NCBI GenBank assembly: GCA_017525025.1
Contig: JAFXUJ010000014.1
Span: 1 to 64,000 of the forward strand
DNA: 64,000 nt
Direction of reading: 5' to 3'
DNA from: Elusimicrobiaceae bacterium
Lineage (GTDB): Bacteria; Elusimicrobiota; Elusimicrobia; Elusimicrobiales; Elusimicrobiaceae
The notes beneath the pieces were generated by a model. That model searched no databases, was not told the DNA's origin, and was given only the letters and a program-made list of their open reading frames with translations. How positions within the stretch are numbered: position 1 is the first letter of the stretch; every line of letters starts with the position of its first letter. This document shows, piece after piece, positions 1 to 59,567 of this stretch. The position numbers and the translations under genes are program-made.

Positions 1-3000
1 CCGCAAACAATTCGGCTTGTTTAACCGTATCAATGCCGAGGTCGGCTTCCATGTCTAAATCTAAATCCAGCATGTCTTCCGGATAGCCTGTCTTTTCCGC
101 TACCATATTTACAACTTCTTTCGTAACCGCCGCTTCATCCAACGCAACGGATTTCGGAGCCGGAGCGGCAACCACCGGAGTGGAAACGGCCGGAGCTGCT
201 TGGATGGGAGCTTGCGCCGTAGGTGTTGTTACGGCCGGTGTGGCAGGGGTTTGCACCGGTGTATGGATCGTATTGACTTTATCTACGAATGCTTGCGAAC
301 CTTCCATTACCAAAGACGGTTTTACGCCGTGATGGTAATTATCTTTTACGCGAAGCGTATTTTGTACCACTTCCAGCACCGGAGTTGGTTGTCCGGAAAT
401 AGCTTTAAGCCAAGCTTCATGTTTGGCTGCGTCCGCAATACGAGGTTGCCCTTCTTGCCAAACTCTTTCTAACAACGTCATGCCGATTTGGGAACCAAAA
501 CCCGCCGCCAAACGTAAGGCATATTTAAAATCATAATGTCCGCCTTTACTCAGCGTAATGCCGGTAAGCTCCGGGTCTGCTTCTTTGAAGTTAGCTATCG
601 GCGGCACAATTCCCGTATTCAAACAACGTACCGCAATTACATCTTCTAAGCCGGCCCCCATGGAGTGCCCGGTAAAACCTTTGGTATTGCTGACAATAAT
701 ATTACTGACGTTTTCACCAAAAGTCGTCTTTAACGCATACGCTTCTGCGCTGGCTGAACCACCCCGCGCCGGGGTATATGTTTCGTGCGAGATAAATACA
801 AGTTGTTTCGCAATATCCGCCCGATTGAGACCATTTTCTCTCTCGGCAGTAGACACTAAGCGATTCATTACCTGGGCAATGTGCCCTACATCTAAACGCG
901 TCACATGGAAACCGCTGTTTGCAATTTCCGTAGCTAGCAACTTGGCCAAGGGTTTCATACCGCGTTTTAATACTTCGCTTTCTTCTTCCACCACAAGAGA
1001 CACCGCACCCATTCCTACAATCATGCCGTTGCGGCGGCGGTCAAAAGGCAGGGCGGCCTTGGTTACATCCCCTTCGGTCGTGGCCGCACCGGAAGCTAAG
1101 AAAGCAGTTAAAATCCACTCGGATACGTTATCGTTCGTAATGTCATCTGCTCCGATAACGATTACGCGTTTGCAACGGCCCAAGCGAATCCAATCCTGCG
1201 CAATAGCAACCGCTTGAGCGGTGGAAGCACAGGCGGAGCTCATCGCGGTGGCTGGTCCGCGCGCGCGAATCCATTGGCAGAAATGAGCATGGGCAATAAT
1301 AATGGTTTTTAAAATAAATTCAGAGGTAAAAGCGGCCGGCTCAATTTCTTTCTCTTTAAAGTTGGTTTGATACCAATTTTCAATTTCTGCTTTTAGCACC
1401 GGATCCGCAATTTGAGCGATAAATTTATCACAAAATGCGCGGACTTCTTTGGCTGTTTTGTTATTAAGTAACCCTGTTACCCGTTTAGTTAAATCGCCCA
1501 TCATGCTATTGGCAACCGGGAAAGCAGAGGTGAAAATCACACCGGTCTCATCAATCATCTCAGCCGGCAAGCCCCAACGATCCGGCAGGTAACCACCGGT
1601 AGAAGTCGGTTTATAATAAAGGACTAACGGAATGCCCGCATCTTTGAGGGCTAATATACCCGCCGCAATGGCCAGTTGGAAACTGCGGTCCATGCAGCGT
1701 ACCCATTTGGCGGGAAGCCCAAATTCTTTTTCTAAATCAAACGCGCCCCCCTTCGCCGATAACTTAATAGCTTGCGAAGCGGAAGTTAAACGTTCAAAAC
1801 GGTGGTTGCCGTCCTTAGACTTAATTACAAATTCTACATGTTTATCAATTTGTTTTTGTTGGACTTCCGAAGAAACCGGCTCAATCATATTGCGCCCGGA
1901 AAGGATTTCATCCAATACACCTTCGCGGAAAATTTTATCCCAACTACCAGGTCCGCCCGCAGCGATACCGCTGATAACAACCGATTTATGAAAATCGGCT
2001 TGCGGGGCGTTTGCCTGCGGTTGGGGTTGTTCGGGCTGAGCATGCGGCGGTTGAGCCGGCGTTACGGCAAAACAAGCCGTCATTTCACTTTGGGTTTTGG
2101 TTACAGGAGTTGGATCTCCTTTAATCCAGCCGACGAAAGCCGGGTTATATGTGCTGTGGTTACCGGCCATATCGGTTCCCGTCCAATCAATATGAATGCC
2201 GGAAGAAATTAAATTGGCAAATAAGTCGTTAAATTCCACGATACCACCTTTTTTAGGGTGATTGGAAGCCAAAACTTTAATATCTTTTTTATCGGTTAAG
2301 GTGTTGGAAGCTAATGCGGAGAGAACGCGTTTAGGGCCACATTCCACAAATAAACGTACCCCGGAATCATACGTGGTACGCAACTGTTTCATCCACTCTA
2401 CCGAGTGAGAAATTTGCGTAACCATTAAATCTTTAATTTTCTCGGGATCATTGGGGTAAAACTCAGCCGTTACGTTCGTGGTAATCGGCATTTTAGGAGA
2501 GTGGAAAGTCAGCGTATCCAAGAACGCGCGGTACTGCGGCATAGCCGGTTGTACAATAGCGGAGTGGAATGCATGCGAAACCGGAATCTGCACGGCTTGA
2601 ATGCCCATATCCGTAAACATTTTGATAGCATCATCAATAGATTTAGAGGCTCCGGCAATAACCGTTTGTGTGGGGCAGTTTTTGTTTGCAACCGCCACAT
2701 AACCGGCTACCCGTCCCAATTCCGGCTCTACCCGTTCTACCGGGGCAGCAATAGAAGCCATTTTACCATTGTCTTCTACGCGAATTTCACTCATTACTTT
2801 CCCGCGGGTGCAAACAGCTTTCAACCCGTTTTCAAAATCAAAAATACCGGCTGCTACGGCAGCGGCATATTCACCCAAACTGTGGCCCATCACCACATCC
2901 GGCCGAATACCGAAGGAAGACAACAAACGCATCATGGCAATATCCGCGGTCAGTACGGCCGGTTGAGTCATTTCGGTACGCTTGATGGCGGCTTCACGTT

Positions 3001-5002
3001 CGGCAATTTGTTCTTTGGTTTCACCGGGTTTGCTCCACAAAGTTTCCGTCAACGTTTGGCCGATAATATCGGTAAGCAACCGGTCAGCCTCGTCAAACGT
3101 GTCTTGTACAATTTTATATTTGGAAGCCAAATCTTTCATCATGTCCACATATTGCGAGCCTTGGCCCGGGAACATAAAACAGACTTTCGGTTTGATAGCG
3201 GTAGGCGTAAAAGGATAAATACCTTTCATACGCAAATACAAGGATTCCTGTTCCCATACATCTTGGGAAGAAGCCGTTTTCTTAAAAAATTCAATTTTAT
3301 CTTTCAGTTTTTCCGGAGATTCGGCGTTAATGGTAACTGCAAATTTGCCGGGGTTAGCAATATGATTCTTATAGGAAATGCTGGGCAAGTAGGTGGGATC
3401 ATACTTGATAGAGACAAGGGCCTTGTCAAGCACATTGAAAAGTTCCTGTTTGGTAGCGGCCGAGAAAGTCAGCACATCGCTTTGAATTTTCTCACCCGGT
3501 ACGTGTAAAATATATGAATTGTTCATGGATACTTGCTCCTGTTTGGGGGTTACCGCCGCCGCAGAAGCGGGGGCCGGTTCTTTATGAAGTAAATTGTTGT
3601 TCATTTCTTCCATGGCTACGTGGAAGTTTGTTCCGCCAAAACCAAAAGCGGATACGTTGGCGCGGCGGATTTTACCGTCCGGCCAGGGTTGTGCCTTGGT
3701 GATAACACGGAAAGGACACGTACTCCAATCCACGGTAGGATTGGGGGTTTCAAAATTGACGGAAGGCGGTAACACCTTATTATATAAGGCCAGTGAAGTC
3801 TTAATTAAGGATGCAATACCCGCCGCCGCTTTGGCATGACCGATTTGACTTTTGACACTGCCCAGTCCAATCGTACCGGGTTTGGCATACGGGGCAAAGA
3901 TATCATGTAGCGCGGCTAATTCTACCGCGTCCCCTACGCGTGTGCTGGTACCGTGGGCTTCAATTAACCCCACATCACCCGGCGTATAATCTACTTGTTC
4001 AAAGGTTTTTTCTACGGCAATTTTTTGGCCTTTGGGGTTGGGGGCTGTAATGCCTTTTCCTTTCCCGTCTGAAGAAGCGCCAACGGCACGAATGACCGCG
4101 TATACCCGGTCTCCGTCTTTAACCGCATCCGACAAACGCTTCAAAATAACCATGCCCGCACCTTCAGCCATGACGAACCCATCGGCCTTGGCATCAAACG
4201 GACATGAACCGTTTGCGGAAAGCGCCCCGATTTTGCAGAATTTAATGTAAGAGGCGGGCGCCATCATTTGGTCTACGCCCCCCACCAGCGCCATATCAAA
4301 ATTCCCCATGCGTAGGCCATTAACAGCTTGGTCTACCGCCGCTAAAGAAGTGGCGCACGCCGCATCTACGGTAAAGTTAGTACCGTGCAAATCAAACACA
4401 TTGGCCACGCGCCCGGCAATTACGTTCGCCAACTCTCCCGGCATGGAATCTTCGGTTACGGGCATGAAGTTAGCCCGGACGCCGTCCTCCATTTCGTCCA
4501 ATAATTTTTTTCCCGTATCGGGCGGTAAAGCTTGATAGGTGGGCGTTTTTTTCAAAATTTCATAATAGACCGGACGATTCAAGCGCAGGTTGGAACGGTC
4601 GTTTTTCATTCCGCCCATAGAGTTGCCGATAATAACAGCCGTGCGGTTACGGTCAAATTCTTTTTTATCGTATCCGGCATCCTCTAGTGCCATACTAGCG
4701 GTTTCAATAGCCAAATGCTGAATGGTATCCATTTGCTTGGCAATTTGGGGAGGAATACGGTATTTTAGCGGATTAAATTTAAAAGTTTGCGGGATGAAAC
4801 CGCCGATCTTGGAATACAGCTTATCTTCGGCCTTGTGATCTGGGCTATAAAACAACTTATAATCCCAGTAAGAGGAGGGTACTTCGGTAATACAATACTT
4901 GCCGGTTTGAATATTATTCCAAAACTCATCTTTATTTAAAGCGCCCGGCATAATGGCGCCTATCCCCACAATGGCAATAGGTTCAAGGTTTTTATTCTTC
5001 AT
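1..5002 (-). CDS. PfaA-like type I polyketide/fatty-acid synthase, KS-AT-KS-ACP (3' end outside window)
   Basis: At least 1667 codons are open, running off the left edge. The ATG at 5002 has AGGAG 6 nt upstream. Domains read directly: KS1 about 1-450 with the complete triad Cys216 (DAACATS), His350 (EAHGTST) and His389 (GHAK); an acyltransferase about 600-900 with FPGQGSQ near 611, nucleophile Ser708 in GHSLGEYAA, and SHAFHS near 809, a malonyl-type signature; KS2 about 1005-1520 with Cys1258 (SSACAST), His1406 and His1446 in unusual contexts (SHETYTP, GHSMGAG); a Pro/Ala/Thr/Gln-rich linker; then an ACP. The ACP reads LGIDT, so Thr1659 sits where the phosphopantetheinyl Ser is expected. The order resembles PfaA-type polyunsaturated lipid synthases. 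The product is unknown, and later reductive domains would lie beyond the edge. Domain assignment is firm; pathway is inference. Confidence 0.93.
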   Translation of the reverse strand, partial: MKNKNLEPIAIVGIGAIMPGALNKDEFWNNIQTGKYCITEVPSSYWDYKLFYSPDHKAEDKLYSKIGGFIPQTFKFNPLKYRIPPQIAKQMDTIQHLAIETASMALEDAGYDKKEFDRNRTAVIIGNSMGGMKNDRSNLRLNRPVYYEILKKTPTYQALPPDTGKKLLDEMEDGVRANFMPVTEDSMPGELANVIAGRVANVFDLHGTNFTVDAACATSLAAVDQAVNGLRMGNFDMALVGGVDQMMAPASYIKFCKIGALSANGSCPFDAKADGFVMAEGAGMVILKRLSDAVKDGDRVYAVIRAVGASSDGKGKGITAPNPKGQKIAVEKTFEQVDYTPGDVGLIEAHGTSTRVGDAVELAALHDIFAPYAKPGTIGLGSVKSQIGHAKAAAGIASLIKTSLALYNKVLPPSVNFETPNPTVDWSTCPFRVITKAQPWPDGKIRRANVSAFGFGGTNFHVAMEEMNNNLLHKEPAPASAAAVTPKQEQVSMNNSYILHVPGEKIQSDVLTFSAATKQELFNVLDKALVSIKYDPTYLPSISYKNHIANPGKFAVTINAESPEKLKDKIEFFKKTASSQDVWEQESLYLRMKGIYPFTPTAIKPKVCFMFPGQGSQYVDMMKDLASKYKIVQDTFDEADRLLTDIIGQTLTETLWSKPGETKEQIAEREAAIKRTEMTQPAVLTADIAMMRLLSSFGIRPDVVMGHSLGEYAAAVAAGIFDFENGLKAVCTRGKVMSEIRVEDNGKMASIAAPVERVEPELGRVAGYVAVANKNCPTQTVIAGASKSIDDAIKMFTDMGIQAVQIPVSHAFHSAIVQPAMPQYRAFLDTLTFHSPKMPITTNVTAEFYPNDPEKIKDLMVTQISHSVEWMKQLRTTYDSGVRLFVECGPKRVLSALASNTLTDKKDIKVLASNHPKKGGIVEFNDLFANLISSGIHIDWTGTDMAGNHSTYNPAFVGWIKGDPTPVTKTQSEMTACFAVTPAQPPHAQPEQPQPQANAPQADFHKSVVISGIAAGGPGSWDKIFREGVLDEILSGRNMIEPVSSEVQQKQIDKHVEFVIKSKDGNHRFERLTSASQAIKLSAKGGAFDLEKEFGLPAKWVRCMDRSFQLAIAAGILALKDAGIPLVLYYKPTSTGGYLPDRWGLPAEMIDETGVIFTSAFPVANSMMGDLTKRVTGLLNNKTAKEVRAFCDKFIAQIADPVLKAEIENWYQTNFKEKEIEPAAFTSEFILKTIIIAHAHFCQWIRARGPATAMSSACASTAQAVAIAQDWIRLGRCKRVIVIGADDITNDNVSEWILTAFLASGAATTEGDVTKAALPFDRRRNGMIVGMGAVSLVVEEESEVLKRGMKPLAKLLATEIANSGFHVTRLDVGHIAQVMNRLVSTAERENGLNRADIAKQLVFISHETYTPARGGSASAEAYALKTTFGENVSNIIVSNTKGFTGHSMGAGLEDVIAVRCLNTGIVPPIANFKEADPELTGITLSKGGHYDFKYALRLAAGFGSQIGMTLLERVWQEGQPRIADAAKHEAWLKAISGQPTPVLEVVQNTLRVKDNYHHGVKPSLVMEGSQAFVDKVNTIHTPVQTPATPAVTTPTAQAPIQAAPAVSTPVVAAPAPKSVALDEAAVTKEVVNMVAEKTGYPEDMLDLDLDMEADLGIDTVKQAELFA

Positions 5003-7296: not shown

Positions 7297-7788
7297 TTAA
7301 GGAAGCAAGTAATAATCCCCGGATGAAATTGTAGAAGAAAAAACTCCTCCTAAACTTTTACATACGCGTGCGGCAAAAGCCTTTCCTTTTCTTGCCCAAC
7401 AGAGTTTTCTCTCATTACTAACGGGATAGTAAGTATTATCCCCCATTTTGCAATATAGTGTTAGGCCGCCGCTTCCATCATTAGTTACACAACTGGTTTT
7501 CCTATCCGCTGACACTATTCTTTTACCATTATATTCCAGACTCCAACCGGACGGAATATCCAAATCCAGTTCTTCAAAGTAATCCGTATATACACCGTTT
7601 TCCATACGGTATCTTTCCTCGGATTGCCGGTAAGCATGCGCCAAAATGATTAGTTGCGAAAAACGACTTTTTGCCACAGACAATTCATACTGTGGCAAGG
7701 CCACGGCAGCCAAAATACCAATAATAAGTACTACTACCAACAACTCTATAAGCGTAAAACCTTTCGTACAACTATTTTTATTTCCCAT
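7297..7788 (-). CDS. Type IV pilin-like protein 1
   Basis: 163 residues. A short basic leader (MGNKNSCTKG) is followed by FTLIELLVV, the prepilin peptidase site G/F with Glu at +5, and a hydrophobic N-terminal helix of about 20 residues ending in ALPQYE. The C-terminal globular part contains Cys residues that could pair (for example CVTN and CWAR), as in PilE/PilA pilins. RBS GGGGGAG lies about 5 nt before the ATG. It would be matured by a PilD peptidase such as the one at 47937-48719 and assembled into a pilus or type II-like pseudopilus. It has its own promoter and lies apart from assembly genes. Confidence 0.9.
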   Translation of the reverse strand: MGNKNSCTKGFTLIELLVVVLIIGILAAVALPQYELSVAKSRFSQLIILAHAYRQSEERYRMENGVYTDYFEELDLDIPSGWSLEYNGKRIVSADRKTSCVTNDGSGGLTLYCKMGDNTYYPVSNERKLCWARKGKAFAARVCKSLGGVFSSTISSGDYYLLP

Positions 7789-9911: not shown

Positions 9912-9945
9912 AAAAAAGGGCCCGCTATAGAACGGGCCCTTTCTA
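9912..9945. terminator. Bidirectional terminator between convergent genes
   Basis: A perfect 10-bp stem AAAGGGCCCG/CGGGCCCTTT (9915-9942) sits between the stop codons of the ACT gene (+) and the ComB-QueC gene (-), with T-rich sequence on both exits. Confidence 0.88.
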
Positions 9946-9960
9946 TTTTCCAAAACGGAA

Positions 9961-11889
9961 CTAATCTAATGCCGTATCATGCACGCCAGCTTCTTCAAAA
10001 CCTTTGGCACGCAACTTGCACGAATCGCAACGTCCGCAAGGTTTACTTCCTCCGGCATAGCAACTCCACGTTAGTTCAAACGGAACCTTGAGCTCGGCCG
10101 CTAGCTTAACAATTCCCGCTTTGCTTAGGCGCATGAGCGGAGCCAAGACTTCAATTCCTTCCCGCACGCCTTGCCGTGTTCCGCGGTTAAGGGCTTCACC
10201 CGCCGCCTTAAAAAAGGCAGGCGTACAATCAGGGTAACCGGAGAAATCAATCGCATTAGGCCCGGCAATAATGGCTTGCGCGTGGACCGTATCCAATAAA
10301 GACCCCGCTATGGATAAAAACATTAAATTACGCCCCGGCACGTACGTAGACGGAACGCCGGCCCGCGTAATTTGCTCCGTAGGTATATCCGGAAGCGGTT
10401 GGGAAGAATCCATCAGCGAGCTTGCTTGCGCTAACCACGGTAAATGCAATTCAATTAAATGATGCCTAATACCCAAACGGCTGGTAATTTGACGGGCAGA
10501 TTCAATTTCCCGCACATGGCGTTGCCCGTAAGAGACCGTTAACGTTTCGCACGTATATCCTTGGTCCAGAGCCCAATACAAGCAGGTAGTAGAATCAAGT
10601 CCGCCGGAAAAAAGAACAATAGCCTTCTTACCGCGGCTCTTGGAAACCGCCACAGACGCAGCCGGAGTTGAAGCCGGGATGGAGTCGTTTTTTTCGTCCA
10701 ACGAAAAGCTCCGCCGGCCGTACTCATTTTGTTCTACTTCTTCGGATTCTACGGAAGATATTTTAATTGTATCTCCTATTCCCGCTTCTTCATGCTGAGA
10801 TGCGTCGGTTGCGCCCAATGAAATACTGCGCTGTCCAAAGGGATCTTTTTCTACCTGATTGTTGCCCACATCGGACATATGAACCGGTTTCCCGTCATCG
10901 GGCGGAGGCGGCGCCGGCCGGGTTGATTTTTTAAGCAACGTATCCATCGGATCATCTACTTGGGGCGTTATTTTGTTGCGATGTTTCAAAGCCGTTTGAC
11001 GGATGGAACGCTCCAAATCTTCTTTCTCTTCTTTGGCCGCACGGACTAAATCCGCAAAAAAACCTTTGATTTTAGATGTGTGCCCTGCCAATCGCTGCGT
11101 TTTTAAATTAACACGCAAATCATCCGGTTTTTTTTCTAGGGAAGGTCCATCCGCTCCTAAGAGACTTAGTGTGATAGGATCGTTTGGATTGGCGTAAGGA
11201 TCCGGCGCTCCTTGTTTTTCGCCATAAGGCAAACAACGGATTTCACCGGCTTGTACCGAAGCCACCTCCGGCACTAATGCAATACCATCAATCCGTAGCG
11301 CACATTTTAAATCACGCGAGGCCGTCCGGGGGCCTTTAGAACGGAATTCCGCAAATCGTACCGTATTGGTAAATTCATCCAAAGCTTCCTGCGGAGTAGC
11401 AATCCCTTCTAAAAAATCTTTCATTCCCTGCGCCACCAGTGCATCTTCTTCTTGCAAATACGGCCCGAAAAGAGAAGCCGGCACTAACAACACATCTTCC
11501 CGTCGTTCCGCCAGGGCTTTTGCCACCGCATCAAAATTGCAAAATCCTCCCAGTAAAATCAAATCGGCAGAACGTAAATTTTGGATAGCCAAAGCTGTTT
11601 CTTCTTCCACCACCAACGCACTTGGAACATCCGTAGCTTCAGCCGCTAAATAAGGAGAATTGTCCGCATAGTCCAGCCCGCTCAACGGTATTTCCGAAAA
11701 TACAACCACCTCTCTGTGCTCGGCTTTAAAACGCGCCGCCACTTGTGCATCTGCACAAACAGTAACCGGGCGCGCGCCTTTATTCAGAAGCGTACAAACC
11801 GTCGTGGCGGTGCGTAATACATCAATCACCACGGCTGTTTTATTCCAAACGGCACACTCTTCCCGAGTTCTAGCTACCAAGACGTTCAT
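9961..11889 (-). CDS. queC: Fusion protein: ComB-like phosphatase + 7-cyano-7-deazaguanine synthase (QueC)
   Basis: 642 residues. Residues 1 to about 222 match the ComB family (2-phosphosulfolactate phosphatase-like; VVIDVLRTATTV and LLGGFCNFDAVA are family motifs). Residues 422-642 are a full QueC: PP-loop SGGLDSTTC (428-436), SYGQRH, and the zinc Cys at 610, 618, 621 and 624. QueC makes preQ0 from carboxy-deazaguanine for queuosine. The 200-residue linker is charged and Pro-rich and has two copies of a short motif (FGQRSISL about 351-358; YGRRSFSL about 390-397). The domains normally occur as separate proteins; I know no functional link. The start overlaps the lipoprotein stop by 20 nt and has AGGA upstream, placing it third in the rlmN operon. 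The QueC half is certain; the substrate of the ComB half is not. Confidence 0.9.
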   Translation of the reverse strand: MNVLVARTREECAVWNKTAVVIDVLRTATTVCTLLNKGARPVTVCADAQVAARFKAEHREVVVFSEIPLSGLDYADNSPYLAAEATDVPSALVVEEETALAIQNLRSADLILLGGFCNFDAVAKALAERREDVLLVPASLFGPYLQEEDALVAQGMKDFLEGIATPQEALDEFTNTVRFAEFRSKGPRTASRDLKCALRIDGIALVPEVASVQAGEIRCLPYGEKQGAPDPYANPNDPITLSLLGADGPSLEKKPDDLRVNLKTQRLAGHTSKIKGFFADLVRAAKEEKEDLERSIRQTALKHRNKITPQVDDPMDTLLKKSTRPAPPPPDDGKPVHMSDVGNNQVEKDPFGQRSISLGATDASQHEEAGIGDTIKISSVESEEVEQNEYGRRSFSLDEKNDSIPASTPAASVAVSKSRGKKAIVLFSGGLDSTTCLYWALDQGYTCETLTVSYGQRHVREIESARQITSRLGIRHHLIELHLPWLAQASSLMDSSQPLPDIPTEQITRAGVPSTYVPGRNLMFLSIAGSLLDTVHAQAIIAGPNAIDFSGYPDCTPAFFKAAGEALNRGTRQGVREGIEVLAPLMRLSKAGIVKLAAELKVPFELTWSCYAGGSKPCGRCDSCKLRAKGFEEAGVHDTALD

Positions 11890-12310
11890 TTAATATTCCT
11901 ATGGCTTTAAAATTCTCAATGGCTTTTTCATCTTGTTCCGTTAAATGATCTACGTATTTAATGGCATAAATAATCAACGTCACTCGCGGGTCGGTGTCTC
12001 CGTCTTCGGCACTATTATATTGACCGATTTGAATGGCATCCGCCCCTTTAGAAGCAGCAAATTTCTTTCCCTTTTCAACCCCCATTAATAATGAATCACG
12101 TTGCGGTCTTAAATTTTTAATACGCAATAGACCTAAATTACCATACGGACGCGTTACATCTTCCCGTCCGCTAATCAGTTGAATATCTTTGGCTTTGGTA
12201 GGCGGAAACTCCGGTCCTATGGCAATCCAATCTATATTTCCCTGGTCCAATGTAGCACACCCGGCCAGTAAAAGAAGCGCCGGCATCACGATCCATTTTA
12301 ATTTCATCAT
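11870..12310 (-). CDS. Small lipoprotein, unknown function
   Basis: 146 residues. The N-terminus is a lipoprotein signal peptide with lipobox LAGC, so the mature protein starts at Cys and is lipid-anchored. The mature part has no motif I recognise; it contains a GADAIQIGQY segment suggestive of a small alpha/beta domain (heavy-metal-binding/YbjQ- or Rcs-like fold, low certainty). Two adjacent ATGs (12310, 12307) follow AAGGAG; the second has better spacing. It lies between rlmN and the ComB-QueC gene in one operon. Confidence 0.78.
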   Translation of the reverse strand: MMKLKWIVMPALLLLAGCATLDQGNIDWIAIGPEFPPTKAKDIQLISGREDVTRPYGNLGLLRIKNLRPQRDSLLMGVEKGKKFAASKGADAIQIGQYNSAEDGDTDPRVTLIIYAIKYVDHLTEQDEKAIENFKAIGILNERLGS

Positions 12311-12317
12311 ATTCTCC

Positions 12318-13340
12318 TTATCTTTTTTGTGCCGCCAACTGCCCACACGCAGCTAAAATATCGTTGCCCATACTTTTGCGTATAGTCACACCGATACCCA
12401 TGGCTTTTAATCCCGCGGCAAAATTTTTAACTACCCGTTCATCCGTTTTTTCACCGCGGCCCAAGTTACAAGCAATCAAATTTACATGCAACAAGTAATT
12501 ATCTTTTATGGAATAAATCCAATCCGCCAGTTTACGGATATGCTCCGGGCGGCTATTCACATTTTCCAACACAGAATATTCCAAAAATACCTGCCGGCCC
12601 GTCATAGCAATATATTCTTCCAAGGCTTTTTTCAGCTCATCCAAATCGTAGCGGCGATTTACCGGCATCAATTTACTACGTTCATCATTGTCCGCATTAT
12701 GCAGGGAAACGGCCAAATTGACCTGCGGTAAATCTACCGCCAGTTTATGCAATTTATCCGCAATGCCCGACGTGGAAATGGAAATATGCCGCATGCCGAT
12801 ATTTAAGTAATCTGGGTTGGACAAATCTTGCACCGCTTTGACCACATTTAAATAATTTAACAGCGGTTCCCCCATCCCCATAAAAACGACGCTGGAAATA
12901 CGATCCCCCAATTTTTCACGGCGCAGATATTGGTACCACATCAAAACTTGGTCGGTAATTTCTTCTTGGGTTAAATCCCGTTTAAACCCCATTTTACCCG
13001 TACTGCAAAACGAACAATGGAGCGCACATCCCACTTGGCTGGAGACACATACACTCCACGAATCTTGCGGCTTTAACAACACCGTTTCAATTTGGAGCCC
13101 GTCGTGCAAAGTAAGCAGTGCTTTGGCAGTGCGGTCTTGGTGCGAACAAACAATTTTGGCTACTTTAAAAGATAAGATCGGCTGTTCTTTTTGTAGTTTG
13201 ACACGCAAATCGGCCGGCAAGTTGGATGCTTCTTCCCACGAGGATATTCCCTGTTTAAAAACAGCCTCGCGTACTTGTGCCAAACGGAAGTTGGGCAACC
13301 CGGCCTCTTTGATATATTGTTTAATTCGTTCAAAATTCAT
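12318..13340 (-). CDS. rlmN: Dual-specificity RNA methyltransferase RlmN
   Basis: Radical SAM enzyme that methylates A2503 of 23S rRNA and, in some bacteria, A37 of tRNA. 340 residues. It has the radical SAM motif CALHCSFC with Cys105, Cys109 and Cys112, the VFMGMGEPLLN motif, the LAVSLHNA segment, and the conserved C-terminal catalytic Cys332 in GNDILAACGQL. Length is typical. The RBS is AAGG before ATG 13340. It is divergent from the phosphohexomutase gene, 92 bp apart, and heads the operon with the lipoprotein and ComB-QueC genes. Confidence 0.97.
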   Translation of the reverse strand: MNFERIKQYIKEAGLPNFRLAQVREAVFKQGISSWEEASNLPADLRVKLQKEQPILSFKVAKIVCSHQDRTAKALLTLHDGLQIETVLLKPQDSWSVCVSSQVGCALHCSFCSTGKMGFKRDLTQEEITDQVLMWYQYLRREKLGDRISSVVFMGMGEPLLNYLNVVKAVQDLSNPDYLNIGMRHISISTSGIADKLHKLAVDLPQVNLAVSLHNADNDERSKLMPVNRRYDLDELKKALEEYIAMTGRQVFLEYSVLENVNSRPEHIRKLADWIYSIKDNYLLHVNLIACNLGRGEKTDERVVKNFAAGLKAMGIGVTIRKSMGNDILAACGQLAAQKR

Positions 13341-53968: not shown

Positions 53969-54026
53969 GTAGGTAGAGGCTGTGTTTGTTACGGTCTTCT
54001 CATTATCTCGTTCACAAGGGAATTTT

Positions 54027-57000
54027 ATGAAAAATATTACACTAACCCCCAAAGGACTTATTTCTATTTTGCTTTCTTTTTCTTTATTATGTAATATGGC
54101 AGCTCCTGCATTCGCACAAGTACGTGTCCCGTCCACCCACCAAATCCAAGAAGCCGTCGTTCAACAAATGCCCACCCCTTTACAAGATACTATTGTTCCC
54201 GGTTTTGACCCCACGAAATCTTTCCAAGAATTAGCTAAATTTATAGACAAAGAAATGAGAGGTTCTTTAACAGACGGACAAGTGGCCCGCATTAAAGAAA
54301 TAGAACAAATCTTTGCCCCGGCCGATCCCTCCCAACCGGTTCAATCTGATTTTGATTTTTTTGAGCAAACTTACCACAACCGTATTGACGAAGAATTTGA
54401 ACGCGAATCCAACGCCATACAGGCTTCCCGTCGGGAAATTCAACAGAAAATTGACAAAAACGAACAAGACTACCGCGAAGAAATTTACTCATTTATTGCA
54501 CCCAAAACCGCCGAGCGCGTACTGAATGAACAACAAGCCGCTCCGGATATACTGACTACCTTGTTAGCCGATATTAAAACACTGTCCTTTGACAAAGACA
54601 AACCACTTGCCGCTCAATTAAATAAGCTGGGAAACAAGTATGCGCCCGCCAGCCCACAAGCTGATTTATTTGTACAAATTTCCCAAGAAGTCCAACAGGC
54701 AGCTGATCTTCGCGAAGGGGCTATCCAAGAATGGAGAACAAAAGCCGAAACAAAGTTGCAAGAATGGTACACGAGCAACATGCAAGCTTTGAACAAGTGG
54801 CGCCAGGATGCTAAGCAACACACAAAAGAAGTTTTTGAAAAAGAATATGAACCGCAAATACTCAAAGAGCGGGAACAAATTGTTCAAGAGTCTGTTCAAA
54901 CGTTATGGAATTACAAAGATTTAGCCCCTTTAGCAAGCGACACGTTACTTCACATAGCTCCCATCATTGCTCCCATGAGCACTCTGGACGGAAAATCTTT
55001 CTTCACAGCGGAACAAAAAGATTGGCTCATTAGCCATTACCTGGACACTTTACGTAATAACCATGAATGCGGTGAACGATTTCCGGATAATCTGCCTTGC
55101 GATGTTGCCTTGCGCGCCGTAGGCGGATTAGGTTTACTGACAGATTCACGCGATGTAGCTTGGGAAATAGAAGAATTTATGGAAGCCAAACGCGATACCG
55201 ACCAATCGGTACCGGCCTTATTATTAGGAACGGCTTCCTTGCTGGCCATGAAGCAATACTCGGTATTGCGGGGTTTCTTGCACCGGGCTACGGAAGCGGA
55301 ACATAACGTAGATAATATAGATTTCTTCAGCGTGGAAACTTATGTTAATATGACCGCCAACCGCAACGGCCACTATCTAGGCGAAGTTTCCAAATACGCA
55401 CAATATCCTCTCCATGAAAAAGCAACCGATAAGACCGCCTTGGGTAATGCATGGGAAGATATGGCCCAAATCTTAGCCGATGAAGGCTCCGAAGAGGCCC
55501 TAGCCCTCTTACGTGAATTTGGGGTAGAAAAATGCGGAGTATATAACTACCTTAAAGTAAATGCCAAGGAAGAAACTAGATTTGCTTGTTCCGGTATCAT
55601 TCCTTTCTTGGTTGGGGCATTGGCGAGCGGCAAAAGCGGTGCCGAAAATTATGACCCGCAAATCAGCAATATGCAAGCCGGAAATACGATTTCTGCCAAC
55701 GGGAGCGGATATGTTACGGAAGAACAAGCCCGCCATAACCGTGCCTTGGCACAAAGAAATGTCCAGGTTTTCCGACAATTTGCCGCAGACAGAGGCTTAA
55801 CCTTAGCCGGTGCCATTATTTACCACCTATTCATACAAAGCATGGGCGATTTGAATGCCGAATCGGAACTGCGTTTAGATACACGTTTATACGAAGCTTT
55901 CCAAGCCCAAAACCAAACCCCCAAGCCCGAGTTTACCCTTACTCCTTATACACGCAACTCCGCCGAATACAACGCCAAACGCCTGCGCCAAGATCGCACC
56001 CAAGTATTTCGTAAACTGGGACGCTTGGCTGATATAGCTATTTTGGTATGGTGTTTGATTGATTTTACCAAGTGGGGCATTTCCGGAGTAAAAATAGCCG
56101 GGGCGTTCTCGCGGATGGCCCGCATGGCGCGCCAAGGGGCTACCGTTGCCCAACGGGCCGCTTATTTGCGTAGCTTAAAAATTGCACCTAAGGCTATAAA
56201 AATAGCCCGCCTGCCCGCCAAAATGAAGATGAGCGTTTCCAGCGTAGTATTGGAGCAGCTCCCGTTATTTGCAAACCAAGATTCTAAATTACTCTCTTTA
56301 CCCGGAGCCATGAAGTCTATCGGTACCTTGACAGCGGAAAATTTAGTCTTGTCCGCAGAGACGGGTAACTTAATGGTTAACTATCAGGGTTTACGCGCCG
56401 GAGGCTTAACCGCTAAACAAGCTTTTGATATTCAAAAAACCGTAGAAGGGGCTACCCAAACCACCAATTTTGCTTTTGCTAATTCTTCCCGTTTCATGCT
56501 GAACAAAAATGCGGCCTATCAGCGCATGTTCTTTGCCAATCTGGAACAGGGATTAAACGAACTGTCTCTTGCAAACCGCACGACTCTGACCAAACAATTG
56601 GTCTCGCCTTTGCAAATGATTAAAATTACGGATATAACCGCAGCCGATGGTTCTAATCTCCTCAGGCCGTTATCCGAAACCGATCGTTTTAATATTATTA
56701 AATTGAGGAATATGTCCGCTGCGGATCGTGCTACTGCTGCCCGACTGAACAATTTATCGGCCTTGGAACGCACGTCCTTGTTTAGGCCCATATCCGCCGC
56801 TGACCGCACCGCAATCATTAGCCAAGCCGGCAGTTTATCCTTGGCAGTGCCCGGCAATATTACCGCCTTTAAAACACCCGATTTGTTCCATACACTCCAT
56901 GGAATAAACATTAAAGGGACGGCTCCGCAACTCAATACCACCGCACTAAGCGGGCTCATGACTACCGCTTTAGGACGCACTCCCGCAAAGACCGAATTGC

Positions 57001-59567
57001 AAAACGCCACCAAGCTGGTTAACAGTTCCTTGTACAACGCAAATATCCAATTTGCCCAGAACCCTTGGTGGAAACGTACGAATAAGGGATATAAGAAGAT
57101 TTTTATGAATAATTTGACCGCCGCCTTTGACAAGGATGGCCAAATATTCCGAAGCGCTTCTTATCGCAATTTTTATACTTCTCTTTTAGCCACGGTGGAA
57201 AAAGACCGCTCTTTGACGGCTCCTTCCCGGATTTCTTCTTGGCGTGCCTTGGCCCAAACGCATCCTAACGCCCAATTTGTACAATTGGGTAAGGTGCTCT
57301 TTGTCCCAGCGGGAGCCAAAGACTTGGCAGGCGCACAAGAGTTACCGCTTACCTTGCAAGCCGATCCGAAGTTAAGAAACATAGAACGCGGCTTCTACCA
57401 ACGGGTAACCTTCACACCGGCATTGGACAAAGGAAATCCGTTTATTGAGTTGGGCATTGACGGCAAACGCCTCCCGCTGGCTAAAATACAATTGAATCAA
57501 GCTGAAATTCCGGCCTTGTTCCAAGCGGCGGCTCAAGCGAATATGCCGCTACGTGTAAAAATCTCTGCTGCCCAACCGTTTAATTGGAGCACGTTCCGCG
57601 AGAACTACCGCTTGACGCGTAAATTAGACAAGAAACGTTATTTCTTCCGCGGCAGAGGCGAATTATTCACGCACGAAATCCCGGTATCTATCCGCCAAGC
57701 GGACGGCTCATTACAGGCTACCCAAATTATTTTAAATGCGGATTCCCACTTAGGTTGGCGTAACACCACGGCCGTGTTAAACGGTAAAAATCTATCCTTA
57801 TACAAAGACGGCAAATTACTGCAAATAACCAAACCGGTGTTCTCTTTACCTAAGAACCAATTAACTCCTTTCTTGGATATTTTACGTGCCACCAAACCGG
57901 AAAAACCGTTCTCTTTAACACTCGTCCGCGGTAAAAATAAGATTACTCCCTTAATCTTAGCAAACGGTTTAAGCTTGAGTTCAGCTTCCGTCAGCTTAAT
58001 TGTCCCGTTGGAAAACACTTACGGAGACCAAATTACAGAAGGGCAAAAGGTAGCCATTTCCCTGGCGTTGCCCTATATTCCGGCGGCACTTTCCCCTTTC
58101 ATTTCTCCTTTCGTTATGCGCTATGGGGCCCTCAAAGTGCTTAAAACCTCTATGGTATTCTCGTTAGCCGGGTTGGGTTTTGCCGGGGCAGCCGGATTCC
58201 GCGGGTATGCTTCTCAACAAAGTCCGCTCCCACCGCTATGGCCGTTGTTTGTATCCGGTGCAGCTATTGGGATTTCTTCTTCGTTAAGCCGCTCTTCGCT
58301 GAACTTGCTTATTGACGGAATGGGTGGCGGCGGAAAACTCTTAAAGAGTATGCTTGCGAAAAATGCCGGTTCCGTATTCTTATTATTGCCGCCGGTAGTC
58401 TATAACTTTTTAGACCCCAAGATTGACTTCTCGGCCGCCTTCCCGACCATGAGCGCGCTATCATTAGCCATGCTTACGTGGATCTCCGCTACCCGCATTG
58501 ATCCCACAATTGGGCTCAAAGCCAATTTTAGATTGTTCAAGGACTTCGGTCTTGCAAAAGAAGGCTTGAGCGCTATGCGCCTCTTGTTTACCAAACAGGT
58601 AGGCCCGCTCGTTTTGGCTACTACGGCGTTTACCGGTTTTGAATCGGCCGCTTTCTATAAAGCGGGGAACCAGTTGTTAAAACCAACTGTGAAGAAAACG
58701 GGACTCGTTAATGCTATGCCGGAAAGTAACCGCCAAAATACAACGGCCTTACTAACGGCTATGGCCATCCAGTTGGTTCCGTTCTTGACTCGCTGGAAAG
58801 CCGAGCCGCTTACCAGAGCCTTGAAAAAACCGAACGTAGTGGGCCAAGAATATCGCCGTATTTTGATGATGTCCTACGCGCTAAATATCACCGGCGGCAG
58901 TTTACTGTTCGCTAATGGCCTGCAAGGGGACACAGCCCCCTTAGGTTTATTGGGCTTGGTGATGATGGGGATGGGAACGGCTAACGTTACGCAATCTTTG
59001 CAAAAGCTTTCTAACTTGCGCGTATTGGAAACTTCCTATGTATTGCGCAAAACAGCCGGTATGACCGGCCTGGCCAAACAGTTGGAAACGCAAGCCATGG
59101 TTACCAAAACCATGACGGGTTTCTCCTCCTCGCAGTTAGGTTTAGCCATTGTACCTTTAATTGTCAGCCACTATACAGACAACCAAATTGCACAAGGGGT
59201 AGAAATTAAATCTCAAGCCGCACTGGATTCTATGTGGATTCCTTTAATATCCATTGGACTCAGCGCTATTCTAGCCGGCCCTGCTATTGGAATATTACCC
59301 AAACATATTCCGCAAGGAATACCCTTCTTGGCTAAGGGAATCTTCGGCTCCTACCCGAACGCGGTTAAGCAAATAACAAGCCCGCAGTTCTACCTCAAGA
59401 AACCGCTCTATGGGGTACCGCCCGGTTGGTTGCCGCTTACCACCGAGCCCATCATCAACATGCAGGAACTAATCCCGCCCCGCCGGACTATGGAAAATGC
59501 CGAGTCGCAACTGAAACAACAAGGCAAGCCGGCCGAAGAACCCTTGCAAATAGGGCCGGGAAAGTAG
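54027..59567 (+). CDS. Giant exported protein with C-terminal MFS-like membrane domain
   Basis: 1846 residues from ATG 54027. A signal peptide (to about residue 32, AAPAFA) is followed by a coiled-coil-rich Gln/Glu region (about 60-300), a helical region, a hydrophobic helix at about 668-690, and four short repeats of about 12-14 residues (about 872-930) such as SAADRATAARL and SALERTSLFR. A beta-rich region follows to about 1310. From about 1330 to 1770 there are about ten to twelve hydrophobic helices resembling an MFS transporter. It ends in a Gln/Pro-rich tail. I know no protein of this build; single-gene unit with the shared-element promoter. No frame break is visible. Confidence 0.82.
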   Translation: MKNITLTPKGLISILLSFSLLCNMAAPAFAQVRVPSTHQIQEAVVQQMPTPLQDTIVPGFDPTKSFQELAKFIDKEMRGSLTDGQVARIKEIEQIFAPADPSQPVQSDFDFFEQTYHNRIDEEFERESNAIQASRREIQQKIDKNEQDYREEIYSFIAPKTAERVLNEQQAAPDILTTLLADIKTLSFDKDKPLAAQLNKLGNKYAPASPQADLFVQISQEVQQAADLREGAIQEWRTKAETKLQEWYTSNMQALNKWRQDAKQHTKEVFEKEYEPQILKEREQIVQESVQTLWNYKDLAPLASDTLLHIAPIIAPMSTLDGKSFFTAEQKDWLISHYLDTLRNNHECGERFPDNLPCDVALRAVGGLGLLTDSRDVAWEIEEFMEAKRDTDQSVPALLLGTASLLAMKQYSVLRGFLHRATEAEHNVDNIDFFSVETYVNMTANRNGHYLGEVSKYAQYPLHEKATDKTALGNAWEDMAQILADEGSEEALALLREFGVEKCGVYNYLKVNAKEETRFACSGIIPFLVGALASGKSGAENYDPQISNMQAGNTISANGSGYVTEEQARHNRALAQRNVQVFRQFAADRGLTLAGAIIYHLFIQSMGDLNAESELRLDTRLYEAFQAQNQTPKPEFTLTPYTRNSAEYNAKRLRQDRTQVFRKLGRLADIAILVWCLIDFTKWGISGVKIAGAFSRMARMARQGATVAQRAAYLRSLKIAPKAIKIARLPAKMKMSVSSVVLEQLPLFANQDSKLLSLPGAMKSIGTLTAENLVLSAETGNLMVNYQGLRAGGLTAKQAFDIQKTVEGATQTTNFAFANSSRFMLNKNAAYQRMFFANLEQGLNELSLANRTTLTKQLVSPLQMIKITDITAADGSNLLRPLSETDRFNIIKLRNMSAADRATAARLNNLSALERTSLFRPISAADRTAIISQAGSLSLAVPGNITAFKTPDLFHTLHGINIKGTAPQLNTTALSGLMTTALGRTPAKTELQNATKLVNSSLYNANIQFAQNPWWKRTNKGYKKIFMNNLTAAFDKDGQIFRSASYRNFYTSLLATVEKDRSLTAPSRISSWRALAQTHPNAQFVQLGKVLFVPAGAKDLAGAQELPLTLQADPKLRNIERGFYQRVTFTPALDKGNPFIELGIDGKRLPLAKIQLNQAEIPALFQAAAQANMPLRVKISAAQPFNWSTFRENYRLTRKLDKKRYFFRGRGELFTHEIPVSIRQADGSLQATQIILNADSHLGWRNTTAVLNGKNLSLYKDGKLLQITKPVFSLPKNQLTPFLDILRATKPEKPFSLTLVRGKNKITPLILANGLSLSSASVSLIVPLENTYGDQITEGQKVAISLALPYIPAALSPFISPFVMRYGALKVLKTSMVFSLAGLGFAGAAGFRGYASQQSPLPPLWPLFVSGAAIGISSSLSRSSLNLLIDGMGGGGKLLKSMLAKNAGSVFLLLPPVVYNFLDPKIDFSAAFPTMSALSLAMLTWISATRIDPTIGLKANFRLFKDFGLAKEGLSAMRLLFTKQVGPLVLATTAFTGFESAAFYKAGNQLLKPTVKKTGLVNAMPESNRQNTTALLTAMAIQLVPFLTRWKAEPLTRALKKPNVVGQEYRRILMMSYALNITGGSLLFANGLQGDTAPLGLLGLVMMGMGTANVTQSLQKLSNLRVLETSYVLRKTAGMTGLAKQLETQAMVTKTMTGFSSSQLGLAIVPLIVSHYTDNQIAQGVEIKSQAALDSMWIPLISIGLSAILAGPAIGILPKHIPQGIPFLAKGIFGSYPNAVKQITSPQFYLKKPLYGVPPGWLPLTTEPIINMQELIPPRRTMENAESQLKQQGKPAEEPLQIGPGK

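What the first reader, a model, noticed from the sequence alone, without database searches (positions are those of the whole stretch)
9961..11889. ComB-like phosphatase fused to QueC through a 200-residue linker with a repeated motif
The two domains are complete by motif (VVIDVLRTATT; PP-loop SGGLDSTTC and four zinc Cys). ComB belongs to a sulfonate/coenzyme M context, QueC to queuosine, with no known link. The linker has two similar motifs, FGQRSISL and YGRRSFSL, which may be a binding or phosphorylation peptide.
Basis: partly seen in the sequence, partly recalled or inferred. Interest (0 to 1): 0.55.

Follow-up and report, generated by a model that had tools for sequence, protein, structure and literature searches.

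The report
ComB-like domain fused to QueC
In one group of Elusimicrobia, the enzyme that makes a precursor of the tRNA base queuosine carries an extra, slightly worn phosphatase-like domain that used to be the neighbouring gene; the fusion is real and old, but what the extra domain does is unknown.

Summary
The fusion is real. Window 9961-11889 (-) is one 642-aa frame: PF04029 (ComB family, aa 13-172, E 1.9e-20) and QueC (aa 422-634, E 5e-71). It is no frameshift. In the genus, 19 of 37 genomes have a ComB hit, all 19 in one 570-786 aa frame with QueC; the other 18 have QueC alone. In the sister family comB is a separate gene, directly upstream of queC in 22 of 23 genomes, typically followed by queE and a small protein, c18. 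So neighbouring genes fused, and ComB was later lost, probably twice. No ComA in 61 genomes: no sign of a coenzyme M link. The window's genome has FolE, QueD, QueE, QueF and TGT. A different element, KGFFS.I..VKEEKEELE...DDPLD.LLKK, is found in 17 of 19 fused genomes, nowhere else in the 61, and weakly resembles the tail of c18. The ComB domain is under purifying selection but has lost residues invariant in separate ComBs. Most likely: the genome's sole QueC, tethered to an accessory, dispensable phosphatase-like domain of unknown substrate.

The parts
9961..11889 (-). 642-aa ComB-like/linker/QueC fusion protein
   Evidence: open frame; PF04029 and PF06508 hits; one frame in 19 of 19 ComB-bearing genomes of the genus
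11224..11889 (-). ComB-family domain, aa 1-222
   Evidence: PF04029 aa 13-172; model pLDDT 83-97 over blocks 1-220, mostly about 95; matches 2z0j Z 24.5, 1vr0 Z 23.8, 2yyv Z 23.0 within aa 1-224
10630..11223 (-). linker, aa 223-420, mostly disordered
   Evidence: pLDDT under 50 at 233-276, 304-316 and 318-418
10984..11061 (-). conserved linker helix (M1, FFADLVRAAKEEKEDLE...), aa 277-302
   Evidence: pattern in 20 of 27 linkers, 0 in 300 rounds of shuffled linkers; profile A3 E 3.3e-25 here, but this row is in the profile; helix at pLDDT about 72
10927..10956 (-). second conserved linker motif (M2, DDPMDTLLKK), aa 312-321
   Evidence: pattern in 21 of 27 linkers, shuffled mean 0.01; helix 314-321 in the model
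10816..10839 (-).
   Evidence: present here, in 0 of 26 other linkers
10699..10722 (-).
   Evidence: present here, in 0 of 26 other linkers
9961..10629 (-). QueC domain, aa 421-642, and stop
   Evidence: PF06508 E 5e-71; TIGR00364 215.9 bits over the cut-off of 150.3; 3bl5 Z 18.5
10591..10608 (-). PP-loop SGGLDS, aa 428-433
   Evidence: invariant in the 21 fused proteins
10018..10062 (-). zinc-type Cys cluster C610, C618, C621, C624
   Evidence: invariant in the 21 fused proteins
11870..12346 (-). c0: small predicted lipoprotein gene, overlaps the fusion's start by 20 bases
   Evidence: a c0 relative lies upstream of comB in many sister-family loci too; no Pfam family over its cut-off
12318..13340 (-). 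RlmN, next gene upstream, overlaps c0
   Evidence: TIGR00048 318.9 bits over the cut-off of 290
9915..9942 (.). terminator-like hairpin after the fusion gene
   Evidence: 10-pair stem; listed by the scan on the + strand only, and such sites were no commoner than in shuffles (5 against a mean of 5.3)

Best explanation
This is the genome's only full-length QueC (the enzyme that turns 7-carboxy-7-deazaguanine into preQ0), carrying at its N-terminus a divergent ComB-family domain. Shown by gene order and trees: the likely ancestral arrangement was a cluster lipoprotein (c0) - comB - queC - queE - c18 with comB and queC close or overlapping; in the lineage of this genus the two genes became one frame, the join is now a long disordered linker, and ComB was lost in part of the genus (probably twice) without loss of QueC. 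Inferred: the QueC half works as ordinary QueC; the ComB half is an accessory domain kept by selection, no longer (or never) a phosphosulfolactate phosphatase. I think it most likely binds or slowly dephosphorylates a small phosphorylated metabolite and is tethered to QueC mainly for co-production or co-location, so the two domains work as separate beads. The conserved linker helix is most likely a docking segment for a partner or for ComB itself, since it is seen only with ComB present.
For: QueC: over the equivalog cut-off, motifs invariant, the only strong QueC hit in the genome. The rest of the route is in the window's genome: FolE, QueD, QueE, QueF, TGT. Across the 61 genomes: PTPS/QueD family in 59 (in two of these only the weaker second PTPS), a QueE hit that is strong or beside QueD in 57 (the 61 of 61 of the tally includes other radical-SAM proteins), strong QueF in 58 (60 in the tally, two of them FolE-type cross-hits), TGT in 60, 59 over the cut-off. 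Origin: separate comB upstream of queC in 22 of 23 sister-family genomes and, in the named collection, within about 200 bases in 46 of 49 loci other than Bdellovibrionales, all 46 with queE and c18 hits too; one genus of the window's family (G165) has the two genes with 4 bases between the matches and another (G090) a 484-aa fusion with a 54-aa linker. Loss: 16 ComB-less QueC rows fall into two starred clades inside the genus's fused rows, 2 changes for that label; the RlmN tree also needs 2. Selection on ComB: dN/dS 0.10, 0.11, 0.05, 0.04 in the four closest pairs, against QueC 0.02-0.06 and linker 0.12-0.37; no stop inside any of the 42 ComB hits. Divergence: of residues invariant in 54 of 54 separate ComB rows, D23, S78, P79, N118, E148 and D149 are kept in 26 of 26 fused proteins of the genus, but R26 in 20, E66 in 13, T95 in 9 and G98 in 13. 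Separate beads: pTM 0.45 and 0.55 although the ComB part and most of the QueC part are well folded. Linker element: hits in 17 of 19 fused and 0 of 42 other genomes, none outside the fused frame (12 of the 17 are rows of the profile itself, 5 are new).
Against: No activity or substrate is known for either half here; all function is inferred from sequence. Low pTM in models from 21-25 related rows does not prove that the domains do not pack. Long conservation of the comB-queC pair argues for a functional link stronger than mere co-production; on the other hand it is not universal: in G169, of the window's own family, comB is separate with no queC, queE or c18 on the 10 kb around it, and in G053 it lies about 6.7 kb from queC on the other strand. 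Of four further dN/dS pairs one gave 0.12 for ComB and the others were saturated or failed. The starred branches of the RlmN tree force only 1 change and the bootstrap of the QueC tree had not settled; the 484-aa fusion has a very long branch in both trees, so one or two origins of the fusion are not settled.
Confidence: 0.6

Rival explanations
1. The ComB domain is a catalytic partner of QueC: it removes a phosphate- or pyrophosphate-containing product or inhibitor of the preQ0 route (QueC consumes ATP), so the fusion channels or pulls the reaction.
For: Tight and old neighbourhood comB-queC-queE; the one order relative without QueC, QueD and QueF (G052) also lacks ComB; six candidate active-site residues kept in all 26 fused proteins.
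Against: ComB is absent in 18 of 37 genomes of the genus that keep QueC; the route has no missing step to fill in the window's genome; T/G loop, R and E positions decay in the fused form; comB stands apart from queC in G169; G052 is a single 89%-complete genome.
Confidence: 0.2
2. The ComB domain is a pseudo-enzyme on its way out: fused by chance through gene overlap, no longer needed, surviving only until it is deleted.
For: Loss of residues invariant elsewhere; clean loss in ComB-less genomes: in one clade the lipoprotein gene ends 8-18 bases before the QueC core KKAIVLF, in the other a 17-24 residue N-terminal extension remains (17 of 19 loci read).
Against: dN/dS of 0.04-0.11 in close pairs, no stop inside any ComB hit, a well-folded model, and a conserved linker element that goes with it.
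Confidence: 0.15
3. Artefact: assembly or sequencing error joined two genes.
For: None found; the sister family does have two genes there.
Against: 26 genomes of the genus plus one genome of another genus, with different linker sequences and lengths, have one open frame.
Confidence: 0.01

Closest known systems
QueC, 7-cyano-7-deazaguanine synthase (TIGR00364 / PF06508; structures 3bl5, 2pg3)
   Same: Whole domain, PP-loop and four Cys, over the curated cut-off; fold match Z 18.5 and 17.4.
   Different: About 420 extra N-terminal residues with a second domain.
2-phosphosulfolactate phosphatase ComB family (PF04029; structures 1vr0, 2yyv, 2z0j)
   Same: Family score over the Pfam cut-off; fold match Z 23-24.5; D, SP, N, ED positions kept.
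   Different: 35.8 bits against the equivalog cut-off of 175.05; no comA in the genome; T/G loop changed; covalently joined to QueC.
c18, a small protein (about 96-117 aa as read) after queE in the sister family's cluster, no Pfam family over its cut-off
   Same: Its C-terminal half resembles the conserved linker element in letters and in order.
   Different: Its N-terminal CPxC part is not in the linker; hhalign probability is only 30-49%, and the element is short and rich in K and E.
comB beside petR/petP in cyanobacteria (PMC9252766, passages read)
   Same: A ComB-family gene with a moderately conserved neighbourhood outside coenzyme M synthesis.
   Different: Different neighbours; the words QueC and queuosine do not occur in that paper's main text.

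Membership tests
QueC (TIGR00364) | score over the curated cut-off | tested here: met
   215.9 bits against 150.3
QueC (TIGR00364) | PP-loop SGG(L/Q)DS and four zinc Cys | tested here: met
   present, and invariant in 21 fused proteins; that these are the defining motifs is recalled
QueC (TIGR00364) | rest of the preQ0/preQ1 route in the genome | tested here: met
   FolE, QueE and QueD side by side on contig C9; QueF at C2:153113; TGT at C7:23407. QueD (79 against 89.25) and QueE (150 against 200) score under the NCBIfam equivalog cut-offs
QueC (TIGR00364) | conversion of CDG to preQ0 | not testable with these tools
   needs an assay
ComB family (PF04029) | Pfam score over the cut-off | tested here: met
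   73.4 bits against 26.4
ComB family (PF04029) | fold of 1vr0/2yyv/2z0j | tested here: met
   Z 23.8, 23.0 and 24.5 within model residues 1-224
2-phosphosulfolactate phosphatase (TIGR00298 equivalog) | score over the equivalog cut-off | tested here: not met
   35.8 bits against 175.05
2-phosphosulfolactate phosphatase (TIGR00298 equivalog) | comA, maker of its substrate, in the genome | tested here: not met
   PF02679 in 0 of 61 genomes at E 0.001; the control rang in Bacillus subtilis and Methanocaldococcus jannaschii
2-phosphosulfolactate phosphatase (TIGR00298 equivalog) | conserved residues of the family (D, R, E, NSP, T..G, N, ED) | tested here: not met
   window keeps D23, R26, E66, N77-P79, N118, E148, D149 but has E95 and T98 where 54 of 54 separate ComB rows have T and G; that these line the active site is inference from conservation
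c18-like element in the linker | profile similarity beyond composition | tested here: inconclusive
   for: hhalign E 1.7e-4, first of 33 gene clusters, 0 of 200 column permutations reach its score, the five best of 570 sister-family ORFs are c18. Against: hhalign probability 49% and 30%, and those five hits have E 0.005-0.25
c18-like element in the linker | whole c18 domain, with the CPxC part | tested here: not met
   only the C-terminal helix and tail align

The most novel reading that the evidence does not exclude
Three genes of one cluster, comB, c18 and queC, were merged into a single tripartite protein (ComB, c18-tail helix, QueC), and ComB and c18 are unrecognised working parts of queuosine-precursor synthesis in Elusimicrobia: a phosphatase-type or ligand-sensing module that docks on QueC through the c18 helix. 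In favour: no separate c18 gene was found in the genomes of the fused lineage searched while a tail-like helix sits in the linker, and the element is absent in all 18 ComB-less genomes of the genus. Against: G090 has the fusion, no separate c18 and no such element, so loss of c18 and gain of the element need not be one event; G052 keeps c18 without QueC.
Probability: 0.25. Interest if true: 0.7.

Novelty: new variant of a known kind. Interest (0 to 1): 0.45.

Why it matters
ComB-family proteins are found here in bacteria without ComA (0 of 61 genomes), where their role is unclear. A stable comB-queC-queE neighbourhood that turned into a fusion gives that family a concrete partner pathway (queuosine) and a testable handle. 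The genus also offers a natural experiment: close relatives with and without the ComB half on the same QueC.

Tried and rejected
Coenzyme M or sulfonate role: rejected as the context, no ComA in 61 of 61 genomes; comC and comDE were not searched. ComB as a missing enzyme of the queuosine route: rejected for the window's genome, whose route is complete without it. Frameshift or assembly join: rejected. Membrane-binding amphipathic helix for the linker element: mean hydrophobic moment 0.45, but in 10 of the 20 helices more than 5% of shuffles did as well, and mean hydrophobicity is mostly near or under zero, so no support beyond an ordinary amphipathic helix. Linker element as a module used in other proteins of these genomes: no hit outside the fusion in 61 genomes. 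Association of comB with queC outside this order: not seen, but barely tested; the one locus of the scan titled as another group (Bdellovibrionales, L184) has no queC on its 5.8 kb, and in the phylum sample all 35 ComB-bearing genomes of 149 are of this order. The fold search listed no row for the linker; that is no evidence either way.

Results against the simple story: in G169 comB has no queC within the 10 kb fetched; in G053 it lies about 6.7 kb away on the other strand. L169, L178 and L182 are the three of 49 loci without an adjacent queC (L178 stops at a contig end inside comB; L169 has 2.2 kb after comB without queC; L182 is the same contig as G053). Of those 49 loci 43 are titled Elusimicrobi-something and 6 only 'bacterium'.

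Corrections and dropped rows: my notes say 20 fused and 17 ComB-less genomes in the genus; the tables give 19 and 18, used here. The QueC tree leaves out G003, G027, G043 and G047, whose QueC my pattern missed, and genomes not fetched. One search gave no result for L086 and L087. The first RlmN tree found only 8 rows; (35 rows) replaces it. One search failed to read the loci and one search replaced it; one search printed nothing and one search replaced it. Of the 54 separate ComB rows, 6 are second copies of the same contigs (L089/L183, L090/L177, L091/L182, L092/L179, L093/L176, L124/L180), so 48 are distinct. The 27 fused frames were picked as long open frames, so they cannot show broken copies; one search reports no stop inside any ComB hit. 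The linker patterns were written after seeing 19 of the 27 linkers. Profile A3 was built from 14 fused proteins, 12 of them among the 17 genomes hit.

Literature: (QueC + fusion + phosphosulfolactate; phosphosulfolactate phosphatase + queuosine; Elusimicrobium minutum + queuosine) found 0 papers each; PF04029 0; COG2045 1. Only passages were read of PMC9252766, PMC11130926, PMC5041015 and PMC2876114; other papers only as listings. The library holds open-licence PMC papers only, so absence there is weak. The structure paper for 1vr0 was not seen.

Full report
What is there. The minus-strand frame 9961-11889 codes for 642 residues without a stop. Profile searches place a ComB-family domain at aa 13-172 (PF04029, E 1.9e-20) and a full QueC at aa 422-634 (PF06508, E 5e-71; TIGR00364 215.9 bits over its cut-off of 150.3). 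The start codon lies inside the end of a small lipoprotein-like gene (c0), which itself overlaps rlmN. A predicted model folds the ComB part (aa 1-222, pLDDT about 95 for most of it) and most of the QueC part, with a disordered linker between them that holds one longer helix, aa 277-302, and a short one, aa 314-321. The solved ComB-family structures 2z0j, 1vr0 and 2yyv match within aa 1-224 at Z 24.5, 23.8 and 23.0, and QueC 3bl5 matches aa 420-637 at Z 18.5.

How old it is. The window's contig belongs to a genome of 1.55 Mb. Order relatives come back from the named collection with Elusimicrobia titles (50 loci, 43 titled Elusimicrobi-something, 6 only 'bacterium', 1 Bdellovibrionales). Among 37 genomes of the genus, own included, 19 have a ComB hit; in all 19 the hit lies in a 570-786 aa frame that also holds QueC; the other 18 have QueC alone in frames of 224-261 aa. 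In the sister family (24 genomes) 23 have a separate ComB; in 22 of 23 it lies just upstream of queC on the same strand, and in the last (G053) about 6.7 kb away on the other strand. In the named collection 46 of the 49 loci other than Bdellovibrionales have queC within about 200 bases after comB, and all 46 also have queE and c18 hits on the locus. Of 14 pairs whose mechanical gene ends were compared, 8 overlap by 1-29 bases. In the window's own family, G165 has two genes with 4 bases between the matches, G090 has a 484-aa fusion with a 54-aa linker, the window's genus has linkers of 134-351 aa on the same count, and G169 has a separate comB with no queC, queE or c18 on the 10 kb around it. 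Apart from G169 this reads as stepwise: neighbours, fusion, linker growth. G090 is a single contig of 1,643,562 bases, which matches my memory of Elusimicrobium minutum; that name is recalled, not checked.

Loss of ComB. On a QueC tree of 56 rows the 16 ComB-less rows sit in two starred clades inside the genus's fused rows (its bootstrap had not fully settled). A tree of the neighbouring RlmN (35 rows) also needs two changes, though its starred branches force only one. In one of the ComB-less clades the lipoprotein gene ends 8-18 bases before the QueC core KKAIVLF; in the other a 17-24 residue N-terminal extension remains. So QueC does not need ComB.

Is the ComB half still doing something? 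In the four closest pairs dN/dS is 0.10, 0.11, 0.05 and 0.04 for ComB, 0.02-0.06 for QueC and 0.12-0.37 for the linker; of four more distant pairs one gave 0.12 for ComB and the rest were saturated or failed. None of the ComB hits has a stop inside. But residues that are invariant in all 54 separate ComB rows (48 distinct) are relaxed in the 26 fused proteins of the genus: R26 kept in 20, E66 in 13 (D in 11), N77 in 20, T95 in 9, G98 in 13, whereas D23, S78, P79, N118, E148 and D149 are kept in 26. The window itself keeps R26 and E66 but has E95 and T98. I read this as a domain under selection whose original chemistry has changed or weakened; that is inference, no activity has been measured.

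The linker. A different element, roughly KGFFS.I..VKEEKEELE, a variable spacer, then DDPLD.VLKK, is common: first part in 20 of 27, second in 21 of 27, against almost none in shuffles (the patterns were drafted on part of the same set). A profile built from 14 of these proteins hits 17 of the 19 fused genomes (12 of them rows of the profile, 5 not), always inside the fused frame, and none of the other 42 genomes. It resembles the C-terminal half of c18: hhalign E 1.7e-4 with a probability of only 49%; with more c18 rows E 5.6e-4 and 30%, yet first of 33 gene clusters and with 0 of 200 column permutations as high. By hmmsearch the five best of 570 sister-family ORFs are c18, at E 0.005-0.25, and with a c18-tail profile the 13 best of 27 real, 540 shuffled and 27 reversed linkers are real ones, at E 6e-6 to 0.5. 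The c18 gene is in 24 of 24 sister-family genomes and in G165 and G169, but has no convincing hit in the 37 genomes of the genus, in nine more of it, in G090, or in eight genomes of a further genus (g12) in which no ComB was found. The best weak c18 hits in the genus include the fused linkers of G028 (E 0.01) and G134 (E 0.09), beside hits of similar strength in unrelated frames. G090 lacks both c18 and the element, and G052 keeps c18 without QueC, which argues against c18 being a dedicated queuosine protein. Capture of the c18 tail by the linker is therefore possible but not proven; K/E-rich helices look alike.

Metabolic context. ComA is absent from all 61 genomes, and the ComB half is far under the phosphosulfolactate phosphatase equivalog cut-off (35.8 against 175.05), so the name ComB should be used for the family only. 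In the window's genome FolE, QueE and QueD lie side by side on contig C9, QueF and TGT elsewhere; the preQ1 route is complete without ComB. Across the 61 genomes the tallies need care: the QueE search counts 61, but only 57 have a hit that is strong or beside QueD; QueF counts 60, of which 58 are strong; PTPS counts 59, two of them only the weaker second PTPS; TGT counts 60, 59 over the cut-off. The one order relative lacking QueC, QueD and QueF (G052) also lacks ComB, which is a single case at 89% completeness.

Verdict. A real, genus-wide fusion that arose from an old gene neighbourhood; QueC half ordinary; ComB half an accessory domain of unknown substrate, selected but dispensable over evolutionary time. 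New domain architecture of known families, of moderate interest because it ties a little-understood phosphatase-like family to queuosine synthesis.

Noticed in passing
window 2-5002 (-): A frame of at least 1667 aa, open at the window edge, with ketoacyl synthase and acyl transferase domains (PF00109, PF02801, PF00698), so polyketide- or PUFA-synthase-like; relatives lie near queC in several genomes of the genus (cluster c28).
   Followed up: partly
window 53982-59567 (+): An 1861-aa frame with no Pfam match at E 1e-5.
   Followed up: no
window 11870-12346 (-): Small lipoprotein-like gene c0 upstream of comB or of the fusion in many loci of both families, overlapping the fusion here; no Pfam family over its cut-off.
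   Followed up: partly
L089:7263-7553, L098:3950-4255: c18, a small protein with a CPxC motif, a K/E-rich helix and the tail KPINPMDLD, after queE in the sister family.
   Followed up: partly
L123 (G000:C9:52000-70000), 58352-58702 of the contig: A second PTPS-family protein beside folP- and folK-like genes, in addition to QueD; two PTPS hits in most genomes of the genus, one in most of the sister family. The names folP and folK are read by eye from the translation.
   Followed up: no
L184:4634-5344: A separate ComB-family gene in a Bdellovibrionales genome, 26% identical to the Elusimicrobia query, without queC on the contig piece.
   Followed up: partly
window 7297-7788 (-): A type IV pilin-like protein ([24 protein letters not shown]) near the locus; members of this cluster appear at several loci of the genus (cluster c21).
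   Followed up: no
L128 (G121:C12:1-7000), 723-1172: A weak second ComB-profile hit (E 5.5e-4, under the cut-off) inside a 689-aa frame whose N-terminus looks like a signal peptide; probably chance.
   Followed up: partly
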